Source: Acetobacter sp.
GTDB taxonomy: Bacteria; Pseudomonadota; Alphaproteobacteria; Acetobacterales; Acetobacteraceae
Assembly (NCBI GenBank): GCA_017474285.1
Contig: JAFVHT010000005.1
Coordinates: 1-64,000, forward strand
Reading direction: 5' to 3'
Length of the DNA stretch: 64,000 bases
Of this stretch, positions 5,491-58,533 are shown piece after piece. Both the position numbers and the translations under genes were made by a program. The notes below the pieces were generated by a model. That model was given only the letters and a program-made list of their open reading frames with translations, was not told the origin of the DNA and ran no database searches. Position 1 is the first letter of the stretch. Each line of letters begins with the position of its first letter.

Positions 5491-5527
5491 AAAAAAACTC
5501 CTCCTCTTTTTGAGAGGGGGAGTTTTT
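5491..5527 (-). terminator. Rho-independent terminator of the beta-barrel gene
   Basis: The inverted repeat AAACTCCTCCTCT / AGAGGGGGAGTTT has a four-base loop. On the minus strand it is followed by a T run, six bases beyond the stop of the outer-membrane protein gene. The flanking A and T runs would let it work in both directions. Confidence 0.75.
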
Positions 5528-5532
5528 GTTCG

Positions 5533-7335
5533 TTAGAGAGCTTTTTGGTGATTCCAACGATCGTCGAAACTGGCATGACCACCCTTTGACCCATAGTAGA
5601 AGGGACTATCATAGAAAGAACCAGGCTGTCCGATCATACGATATTCTGTTGTGACTTGTAAGCCCTTGATACCGGTATCATAAGCCATGCCGACAATGCC
5701 TTGATAAGCAAAGCCACCACTAGTGCCGTGAATAACATTTCCACTGCTCATAGAGGTCATGACATTATTATAACTTTGCCAGAGATAACCAGCACCCACC
5801 CCAACAAATGGGGTTAAGGGAGATTTGATTTTAAAATGTTGTTGGAGGTCAACATCGTAGAAGACATTGGCGAGAACACCATAAGTTGCGCCTGTGTTAT
5901 GATAAATGGCTCTATGGGGAGAAGAGGGGGAGGGTCCTGTTCCAGAGGGGATCGGCTCAGGTTCACCGTGTTCTCCTCTATGCTCAATATGACCAATGAC
6001 CACTTTTTCTGGAAGTCCTAGTCCATCTCCAGGTCCTAAATGACCTCTGTCTTTTCCTGGTCCGTCCCATTTTTCTCCACGCGCTATTGGCGGGGGTTTT
6101 AAAATGTGCGAGGTTGGCGTGCCATTACCAATGGGATAATCAGGGTATTTACCATAACCATGATAGTATGAACCACAATTGGGACCATTGCCCATATAGG
6201 CAGGGCAGCCGCCGTAGACGTTACCAGCTGAGGCGTTATCAGCCTTATTATAGGGATTATAGTTGTTATGATAGGTTTCTGTTGAACCCTTATACTGATA
6301 AGGGTTATAAGAATTGGTTGCGTGTGGAATACTATAGATCGGTGCAGAATTGTTAGGACCAAGAGGGGGAGGTCCGTTTAGATAGGGATATGTATTTTCA
6401 GGGCTAGAATAAGGGCTCGGATTGGCAGGACCATACGGTTGTGGTTGATTTCCTGCAGTGCCAAGTTGATCGTGACCTTTATCATCAGCGGTCGGAACCG
6501 TCCAAACAGGACCAGGAGGGGTAACCTGTGTTGCCTGTTGGGCATTAGGATCACCACTATATGTGCCAGGGAGTTTAGTATCGCCGCTTTTCGAACTGCC
6601 TGCCATCCATTTGGGTTCGATATATTGAACAGGTCCTATCCCTTGGTCCATTTCTGGAACGTTGACTTTTTGGTAGTAGGTTTTGCCATCACGAGTATAT
6701 CTATAAGTATATGTTCCCGGAGTAAGTTCAGGCGCTGTAAACCCTGCATGCCCTTCTACTGGAGCAGGACTCCCAAACGACCCACCCCCGCCATAGAAGA
6801 GGCACTTACCTCCTTGTTCTAAGCCGCTGGCACAGTCAACGGGTACGGAATCGCCTGGCGCGTAGGCGTTGTCTTTCCATGTTTCATAGACTTTTTCACT
6901 AGGGAGTGCATCTGGATCTGTAACTGTTGATCCTCCCCATTTTTCTGCTGCTGCATATCCTGCATATGAGGCTGGAATGGCAGCAAGGGTAGCGTTGGCG
7001 ATTCTGTCGTCGTCGTCAGAGGTATTGTTGTTAGCGCCGTAATTGATGTGTGAGGCACTATAGACACCTTCGACCTCTGCACGGAGGAGTCCGTTACCAA
7101 ACCCCCAGCCAAAGGCGCCTAAGCCTGTATAGCCCGTATTGTGTTGGAATTGGAATTTGCGCACAGCAGGACCATCGGCGGGTGTATTGGCGTGGATATG
7201 TTGGTTTTGGACAAGATTATACCCAGCCCCCGTATCCAGATAAGGTCCTGAAATGGTTGAGGCGGAAGCAACAAGAGGGGCAACAGCTGGCGCTGCGGTT
7301 AAAGTCGTTGTAAGAAGAAGCGAGCGTAGCCGCAT
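5533..7335 (-). CDS. Outer-membrane beta-barrel protein with long Pro/Asn/Tyr-rich insert
   Basis: The chosen start at 7335 gives 600 residues, begins with a clear signal peptide (MRLRSLLLTTTLTAAPAVAP, then an Ala-rich cleavage region) and has GGGAG upstream. An ATG 60 bases further up would add an implausible tail. After the signal, ISGPYLDTGAGYNL and a first strand pair resemble small OmpA-like barrels. The C-terminal quarter (PFVGVGAGYLWQSY; GMAYDTGIKGLQVTTEYRM) supplies the remaining strands. Between them lie roughly 350 residues rich in Pro, Asn, Tyr and Gly, probably an extended surface loop. Exact function is unknown; adhesion or surface display is an inference. A run of nine G lies 73 bases upstream of the start. 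Confidence 0.75.
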   Translation of the reverse strand: MRLRSLLLTTTLTAAPAVAPLVASASTISGPYLDTGAGYNLVQNQHIHANTPADGPAVRKFQFQHNTGYTGLGAFGWGFGNGLLRAEVEGVYSASHINYGANNNTSDDDDRIANATLAAIPASYAGYAAAEKWGGSTVTDPDALPSEKVYETWKDNAYAPGDSVPVDCASGLEQGGKCLFYGGGGSFGSPAPVEGHAGFTAPELTPGTYTYRYTRDGKTYYQKVNVPEMDQGIGPVQYIEPKWMAGSSKSGDTKLPGTYSGDPNAQQATQVTPPGPVWTVPTADDKGHDQLGTAGNQPQPYGPANPSPYSSPENTYPYLNGPPPLGPNNSAPIYSIPHATNSYNPYQYKGSTETYHNNYNPYNKADNASAGNVYGGCPAYMGNGPNCGSYYHGYGKYPDYPIGNGTPTSHILKPPPIARGEKWDGPGKDRGHLGPGDGLGLPEKVVIGHIEHRGEHGEPEPIPSGTGPSPSSPHRAIYHNTGATYGVLANVFYDVDLQQHFKIKSPLTPFVGVGAGYLWQSYNNVMTSMSSGNVIHGTSGGFAYQGIVGMAYDTGIKGLQVTTEYRMIGQPGSFYDSPFYYGSKGGHASFDDRWNHQKAL

Positions 7336-7675
7336 GATAGAACTCCCATTACTTATAGGGTTGTTGTTCCTTCCCCTATAAGACCCCCTTATCATAAAGT
7401 TATGTATGGGGGGGGGACTCTTTATAACATTTTTGTGAGATTACACAAAAAAAACGTAAAAAAACAATAAGAATTTTACAAAAAATATTAAAAAATTAAA
7501 AATAAATCTAGTTTTCTTAAATATTAAATGAGATATGTAATGAAATATCTGAATATAAGATTATATCTTAAATAATGGTGGGCGGTAAACACAGCGATAG
7601 GGCATAGTGATAGGGTGAAAGACGTTGTTGGGTTGTAGAGTCTACAAACCATAAGATAAAAATATTAATAGATAG
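7336..7675. other. Intergenic region upstream of the beta-barrel gene
   Basis: This AT-rich stretch lies between two minus-strand genes. It holds the G9/C9 homopolymer at 7408-7416 and, on the minus strand, a TATGAT hexamer downstream of it that could be a -10 element. No small gene is visible. Confidence 0.45.
7408..7416. repeat. G9 homopolymer tract (C9 on the gene strand)
   Basis: Nine consecutive G on the plus strand sit 73 bases upstream of the beta-barrel start codon, close to a candidate -10 box. Tract length could alter promoter spacing. This is inferred from position only. Confidence 0.9.
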
Positions 7676-34735: not shown

Positions 34736-35434
34736 ATGATTCGTAATAAAAAAATATTAGCAATAATCCCAGCACGTGGAGGTTCCAAAGGAATTCCACG
34801 AAAAAATATTAAAGAATTTTTAGGTAAACCTCTGATTGCTTGGACCATAATGGAAGCTAAAAAATCTCAGTACATAAATAAATGTGTTGTATCAACTGAG
34901 GATGTAGAAATAAAGCAAGTAGCAGAAAAATGGGGGGGGGAAGTGTTAGAACGCCCTATGAATCTTGCGTTAGATAATACACCAGGAGTGGAGTCTGTAA
35001 TTCATGCAATTGAGGCATTTCCTAATTATGATTATGTAGTATTGCTTCAACCTACATCGCCTCTTCGTACAGTAAATGATATTGATGGTTGCATCAAATA
35101 TACAATTGATCACAATGCAATTAACTGTGTTAGTGTTACGATATCTATGATTAGTCCGTATTGGATGTATTCTAAAAAAGAAGATTCTTTTATGCAAGCA
35201 TTATTACCAATTGATAAAAAGCTTTGGTATCAAAGGCAAAAATTACCAACCGTTTATCAGTTAAACGGTGCTATATATATTGTAACACCAGATTTTGTAA
35301 AGCGTGAAAAAACTCTGGTTGGTAATCATTTCTTAGGATATGAAATGCCTAAAGATCGCTCTTATGATATAGATGATCCTGAAGATTTCGTTTTATGTGA
35401 ATATTTAATGTCAAAAAGAATAGATGGAAATTAA
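34736..35434 (+). CDS. neuA: CMP-N-acetylneuraminate cytidylyltransferase with internal G9 tract
   Basis: This 232-residue nucleotidyltransferase activates sialic acid with CTP. Family motifs are IIPARGGSKGIPRKNIK, VVLLQPTSPLR, YQLNGAIYIV and a final DIDDPEDF. The enzyme is a single domain with no O-acetylesterase. Codons 66-69 (Trp-Gly-Gly-Glu) contain nine consecutive G at 34932-34940. Loss of one G would give a stop four codons further on, and gain of one a stop about 13 codons on. The present length keeps the frame open. A CMP-legionaminate synthetase is a less likely alternative. Confidence 0.9.
   Translation: MIRNKKILAIIPARGGSKGIPRKNIKEFLGKPLIAWTIMEAKKSQYINKCVVSTEDVEIKQVAEKWGGEVLERPMNLALDNTPGVESVIHAIEAFPNYDYVVLLQPTSPLRTVNDIDGCIKYTIDHNAINCVSVTISMISPYWMYSKKEDSFMQALLPIDKKLWYQRQKLPTVYQLNGAIYIVTPDFVKREKTLVGNHFLGYEMPKDRSYDIDDPEDFVLCEYLMSKRIDGN
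34932..34940. repeat. G9 homopolymer inside neuA
   Basis: Nine G in the coding strand at codons 66-69 of neuA. It is placed early in the gene, where slippage would remove most of the enzyme. This is the classic position of a contingency tract. Confidence 0.92.
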
Positions 35435-58523: not shown

Positions 58524-58533
58524 GGGGGGGGGG
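58524..58533. repeat. G10 homopolymer upstream of paralogue B
   Basis: Ten consecutive G begin 44 bases before the start codon at 58568, in the short gap between the two paralogues. It lies in the probable leader or promoter. Confidence 0.9.

What the first reader, a model, noticed from the sequence alone, without database searches (positions are those of the whole stretch)
7408..7416. G9 tract in front of a surface beta-barrel gene
The run lies 73 bases upstream of the start of an outer-membrane protein, next to a possible -10 box. Together with the tracts in neuA and before 58568, three runs of nine or more G occur in 64 kb of AT-rich DNA; far fewer would be expected by chance. Tracts in the -10/-35 spacer control porins such as PorA and Opc in Neisseria.
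Basis: partly seen in the sequence, partly recalled or inferred. Interest (0 to 1): 0.6.

Follow-up and report, generated by a model that had tools for sequence, protein, structure and literature searches.

The report
Slippery poly-C before an OmpA-like gene
A run of nine identical bases, of the kind that miscopies easily, lies just in front of a surface-protein gene in a small-genome Acetobacter whose nearest named relative came from a goat stomach, and a sister species carries runs of differing length in the same place before its own copies, so the run probably tunes how much of the protein each cell makes.

Summary
The G9 run at 7408-7416 is real. On the gene's strand it is C9, -73 to -81 from the ATG (7335) of a signal-peptide protein (5533-7335, minus strand). 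The genome is a reduced Acetobacter (1.73 Mb). G/C runs of nine or more are about 6-15 times commoner than Markov models predict, but three in 64 kb is this genome's average. The gene is an OmpA-type barrel paralogue with a ~370-residue insert; it lacks the last barrel strand and the OmpA domain, so it may be damaged. In the reduced relative G015 (goat-abomasum MAG RGIG1504), eight paralogue copies carry C6 to C10 at the same place; two with identical nearby flanks differ only as C9 versus C10. Ordinary ompA copies in both genomes, and orthologues in other Acetobacter, have no run. Length-variable control of a surface-protein family is therefore likely. A -10/-35 spacer role, as in PorA, is not supported: the conserved promoter-like sequence lies upstream of the run at varying distance, and the run forms the 5' arm of an inverted repeat in the leader. 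Promoter boxes, within-species variation and expression remain untested.

The parts
7408..7416 (-). C9 tract (G9 on +), -73 to -81 from the ATG
5533..7335 (-). OmpA-type beta-barrel paralogue, 600 aa from ATG 7335: signal peptide, seven of eight barrel strands, ~370-aa Pro/Gly/Asn-rich insert, no last strand and no OmpA domain
7343..7347 (-). Shine-Dalgarno GGGAG
   Evidence: sequence
7384..7416 (-). Inverted repeat: C9 arm, AT stem-loop (CATAA-CT-TTATG), G5 arm (7384-7388)
7352..7382 (-). Second leader hairpin CTTATAGGG...CCCTATAAG
7421..7429 (-). Extended -10-like TGTTATAAA just 5' of the tract; would put the start inside the tract
   Evidence: background-level score
7391..7396 (-). -10-like TATGAT 3' of the tract; the only box that would fit a spacer or Opc-like model; no -35
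7459..7499 (-). T-rich block with TTGTTT (7462-7467), similar to the block upstream of the tracts in G015; candidate -35 region
5499..5532 (-). Terminator-like hairpin directly after the truncated gene
   Evidence: inspection

Best explanation
A poly-C contingency tract in the 5' regulatory region of a fast-evolving OmpA-type surface-protein family. Replication slippage changes its length, and length changes expression, so cells differ in which long-loop paralogue they display. Shown: the tract, its excess over chance, its shared position in a sister species, length differences between near-identical copies, and its absence before the ordinary ompA copies. Inferred: that length varies within this species and alters expression. 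Level of action: most likely at or just downstream of the transcription start, in the leader, rather than in a -10/-35 spacer; this step is weak. In this assembly the gene is 3'-truncated, so its product may not assemble whatever the tract does.
For: Bimodal G/C run spectrum. Runs >=9 lie within 200 bp upstream of an ORF in 11 of 46 cases, against 25 of 501 for runs of 5-6 (P = 6e-5). G015 paralogue promoters carry C6, C8, C8, C9 x4 and C10; L214 and L216 are identical for 45 bp upstream and about 90 bp downstream except C9 versus C10. Core ompA copies in G000 (C41) and G015 (C33), and 28 orthologue loci from 28 other Acetobacter genomes, have no run of six or more G/C there. A random 30-bp slot holds a G/C run >=8 with probability about 0.0014. 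MutS is present in both genomes, so loss of it is not the cause of the long runs. Other classic phase-variable gene types carry long tracts: lipoprotein signal peptides in ON and OFF states, a type I specificity gene with C13 in G000 and C12 in G015, and DNA methylases.
Against: No second genome of this species, so no length variation at this locus was seen. No expression data. No promoter above background in the window. The gene lacks its last barrel strand and OmpA domain. Long tracts also lie in or beside housekeeping genes (mqo, ilvC, priA, dxs, mreB), so a tract alone does not prove a switch.
Confidence: 0.55

Rival explanations
1. PorA/Opc-like: the tract sits in or replaces part of the core promoter (-10 TATGAT at 7391-7396), and length sets RNA polymerase spacing.
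For: TATGAT lies 11 bases 3' of the tract; in G015 TATCAT or TTTGAT follows it. Opc expression differs between 11 and 12 C (PMC3447861).
Against: No -35 at a usable distance; background scores. The upstream TTG block shared with G015 lies at different distances from the tract (roughly 33-52 bases). Paralogue C52 has TTGACT-17-TATAAT upstream, placing the start at the tract.
Confidence: 0.25
2. Leader-RNA element: the tract is transcribed and is the 5' arm of a hairpin (C-run, AT stem-loop, G-run) affecting mRNA stability, early elongation or sRNA binding, somewhat like the G-repeat in the tlpB leader of Helicobacter. This is a sub-model of the best explanation.
For: All five distinct leaders pair the C-run or its 3' part with downstream Gs; z against shuffled downstream sequence -3.4 (window), -4.6 (C52), -2.1, -2.9 and -1.5 (G015), against a median of -0.4 for 47 other tracts. 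The inner stems differ in sequence between copies yet stay paired. Upstream promoter-like block.
Against: Computed Shine-Dalgarno accessibility does not change between C6 and C13, so simple sequestration is not supported; the G015 z-scores are modest; no start is mapped.
Confidence: 0.3
3. Not a switch: a non-adaptive tract in a decaying gene of a shrinking genome with a G/C slippage bias.
For: The gene is 3'-truncated; tracts also occur at housekeeping genes; the genome is reduced.
Against: Tract conserved in position in G015 and absent before core ompA; run lengths 6-7 are not in excess and A/T runs show no excess; MutS is present.
Confidence: 0.2
4. Sequencing or assembly artefact (poly-G calls, collapsed strains).
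For: Some tracts lie at contig ends, e.g. C48:1-15.
Against: This one is inside a 64.7-kb contig; most tracts are internal and several recur at homologous sites in an independent assembly.
Confidence: 0.04

Closest known systems
opc promoter of Neisseria meningitidis (poly-C; Sarkari 1994, cited in PMC6389960; PMC3447861)
   Same: Poly-C run before an outer-membrane-protein gene; 11 versus 12 C changes expression there
   Different: Here promoter overlap is unproven, no expression data exist, and the gene belongs to a multi-copy OmpA-type family
porA promoter of Neisseria (poly-G in the -10/-35 spacer; own knowledge)
   Same: G/C homopolymer upstream of a beta-barrel gene
   Different: No recognisable -10/-35 pair flanks the tract here
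tlpB leader G-repeat of Helicobacter pylori read by the sRNA RepG (PMC8295292)
   Same: Length-variable homopolymer, probably in the mRNA leader here too
   Different: C rather than G run, self-pairing hairpin, no sRNA identified
Hyper-mutable tandem repeats in Acetobacter pasteurianus (Azuma 2009, cited in PMC4686929)
   Same: Repeat-length variation in the same genus
   Different: Five genes with tandem repeats there; here poly-G/C tracts, 54 genome-wide

Membership tests
Opc/PorA-type promoter phase variation | Long G/C homopolymer directly upstream of an outer-membrane-protein gene | tested here: met
   (though this copy of the gene is truncated)
Opc/PorA-type promoter phase variation | Tract lies within the core promoter | tested here: inconclusive
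   Background-level promoter scores; conserved block upstream at varying distance
Opc/PorA-type promoter phase variation | Tract length varies reversibly at the locus between cells or isolates | tested here: inconclusive
   Varies between paralogue copies in G015; same-locus variation not observable
Opc/PorA-type promoter phase variation | Expression depends on tract length | not testable with these tools
   needs a reporter or RNA
Leader homopolymer regulation (tlpB/RepG type) | Tract is transcribed in the leader | tested here: inconclusive
   C52 promoter and upstream block suggest it; start not mapped
Leader homopolymer regulation (tlpB/RepG type) | A trans-acting sRNA pairs with the tract | not tested
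   no sRNA searched for beyond Rfam
OmpA family | N-terminal eight-strand barrel | tested here: not met
   Window protein ends before the last strand; the intact paralogue L069 has an OmpA-like fold
OmpA family | C-terminal PF00691 domain | tested here: not met
   Absent from the window protein; present in L069, L058, L073. Best called a truncated paralogue by homology

The most novel reading that the evidence does not exclude
A family of OmpA-type genes in small-genome Acetobacter (one species from a goat abomasum, one of unknown source) is tuned by a slipping poly-C arm of a conserved leader hairpin (C-run, AT stem-loop, G-run), so length acts on the RNA or on early transcription rather than on promoter spacing.
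Probability: 0.22. Interest if true: 0.65.

Novelty: new variant of a known kind. Interest (0 to 1): 0.5.

Why it matters
My searches of the open-access library turned up no paper on homopolymer phase variation in acetic acid bacteria. Two reduced-genome Acetobacter species, one of them from a goat abomasum, appear to carry a contingency repertoire (OmpA paralogues, lipoproteins, methylases) of the kind known from mucosal bacteria, which would point to host-driven surface variation evolving in a vinegar-bacterium genus.

Tried and rejected
Loss of MutS as the cause of the tracts: MutS is present in both genomes (MutL not tested). Shine-Dalgarno sequestration by tract length: no change from C6 to C13. 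Sigma-70 scoring in the window: background only. Genome-contig search with the protein: nothing. Rfam: only a tRNA. AlphaFold of the window protein: low confidence (pLDDT 47), not used for a fold search. The syntenic tsaD-ompA junction in G015 could not be compared because its contig ends in repeats after tsaD.

Full report
What is there. The + strand has G9 at 7408-7416. The gene to its left runs on the minus strand, so for the gene the run is C9. The ORF caller starts at 7395, but a Shine-Dalgarno GGGAG, a signal peptide and all homologues put the ATG at 7335; the tract spans -73 to -81.

Genome. A tsaD search places the window in Acetobacter; the closest hit, contig JAFPVE010000022 of MAG RGIG1504 from goat abomasum, is the same contig (same length and gene position) as one in genome G015. 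G000 has 1.73 Mb and G015 about 1.5 Mb, against 2.3-4.7 Mb in the rest of the genus. The source of the window genome itself is not known to me. G000 has 54 G/C runs of nine or more (31 per Mb), G015 34 (23 per Mb); the eleven other genus members for which I worked out densities, chosen from the list, range from 0.8 to 20 per Mb.

Chance. In 464 kb of G000, G/C runs of length 5, 6, 7, 8 and >=9 number 426, 75, 9, 5 and 17; Markov models of order 1, 3 and 5 expect about 1-3 of length >=9. A/T runs of >=9 are fewer than expected. Long runs are over-represented within 200 bp upstream of ORFs (11 of 46 against 25 of 501, P = 6e-5), with the caveat that a frame-broken gene counts as intergenic in this test. 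Three in 64 kb is in line with this genome's mean (expected 2.0).

The gene. Relatives are OmpA-type proteins: barrel, Pro-rich linker, PF00691 domain. The intact G000 paralogue (C41, L069) models with an eight-strand barrel plus OmpA-like domain at moderate confidence (pLDDT 65) and matches OmpA and NspA structures. The window protein carries a ~370-residue insert between strands, then stops at HQKAL, before the last strand, and is followed at once by a terminator-like hairpin. It is therefore a truncated paralogue; whether it folds in the membrane is doubtful.

The same tract elsewhere. In G015, copies on contigs C30, C29, C36, C31 (two), C21, C18 and C17 have C9, C9, C10, C8 and C6, C9, C8 and C9 at about -70 to -85; a ninth copy, on C13, is cut off by the contig end before the tract. 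C29 and C36 have identical sequence for 45 bp upstream and about 90 bp downstream (diverging further out) but differ by one C. Core ompA copies with short loops (G000 C41, G015 C33) have no tract, and neither do the 28 orthologue loci read out from 28 other Acetobacter genomes. G000 paralogue C52 has an interrupted C6TC4. A tree puts the tract-bearing and core copies of the two reduced genomes in one clade, with the window copy on a long, unplaced branch.

Where the promoter is. In the window every candidate scores at background. A T-rich block ending in TTG, upstream of the tract, is similar between the window and several G015 copies (dinucleotide-shuffle p 0.006-0.012 for three copies, 0.05 to 0.47 for three others) and strongly shared between the two diverged G015 types; its distance to the tract varies (roughly 33-52 bases). 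Paralogue C52 has TTGACT-17-TATAAT directly before its C-run (score 14.8 against a 95% background of 8.9). These favour a start at or upstream of the tract, not a spacer position.

Leader hairpin. Read as RNA, the C-run is the 5' arm of an inverted repeat closed by a G-run around an A/T stem in all five distinct leaders (z -1.5 to -4.6; median -0.4 for 47 other tracts). Between two G015 leader types one inner pair changes from C-G to U-A, a compensatory change (by inspection). Predicted Shine-Dalgarno accessibility does not depend on tract length, so how length would act through the RNA is open.

Other tracts. neuA G9 is in frame. G10 at 58524 lies 35 bases before ORF 58568. Elsewhere, long tracts lie in lipoprotein signal peptides with both ON and OFF copies, a type I specificity gene (C13 in G000, C12 in G015), methylases and glycosyltransferases, but also in or next to housekeeping genes.

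Judgement.

Noticed in passing
L029, L033 (G000); L102, L110, L111, L210 (G015): Lipoprotein family with a poly-C run inside the signal peptide; some copies in frame (ON), some out of frame (OFF).
   Followed up: partly
L089:2704-2716 (G000), L103:1498-1509 (G015): Type I restriction specificity/methylase gene with an orthologous tract, C13 versus C12; possible phase-variable methylation.
   Followed up: partly
L079:1531-1543 (G000), L127:1499-1509 (G015): N6/N4 DNA methylases with G13 and C11 tracts.
   Followed up: no
G000 C26:10099-10127 (L213): A 93%-identical fragment of the G015 poly-C promoter motif (C8) about 200 bp upstream of apt; relic or second user.
   Followed up: no
L098:1501-1613 (G015), L097:1580-1589 (G000): C9 and G9 about 95 bp apart in opposite orientation in intergenic DNA that is 94% identical between the two species; no Rfam match.
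   Followed up: partly
window 34932-34940: G9 inside neuA, in frame (codons for W-G-G-E).
   Followed up: partly
L034 (mqo, G000), L126 (ilvC, G015), L104 (priA, G015): Long G/C tracts inside housekeeping or metabolic reading frames; not all tracts are plausible switches.
   Followed up: no
G000 C48:1-15 and other contig ends: Some tracts lie at contig ends and could be assembly artefacts or repeat breakpoints.
   Followed up: no
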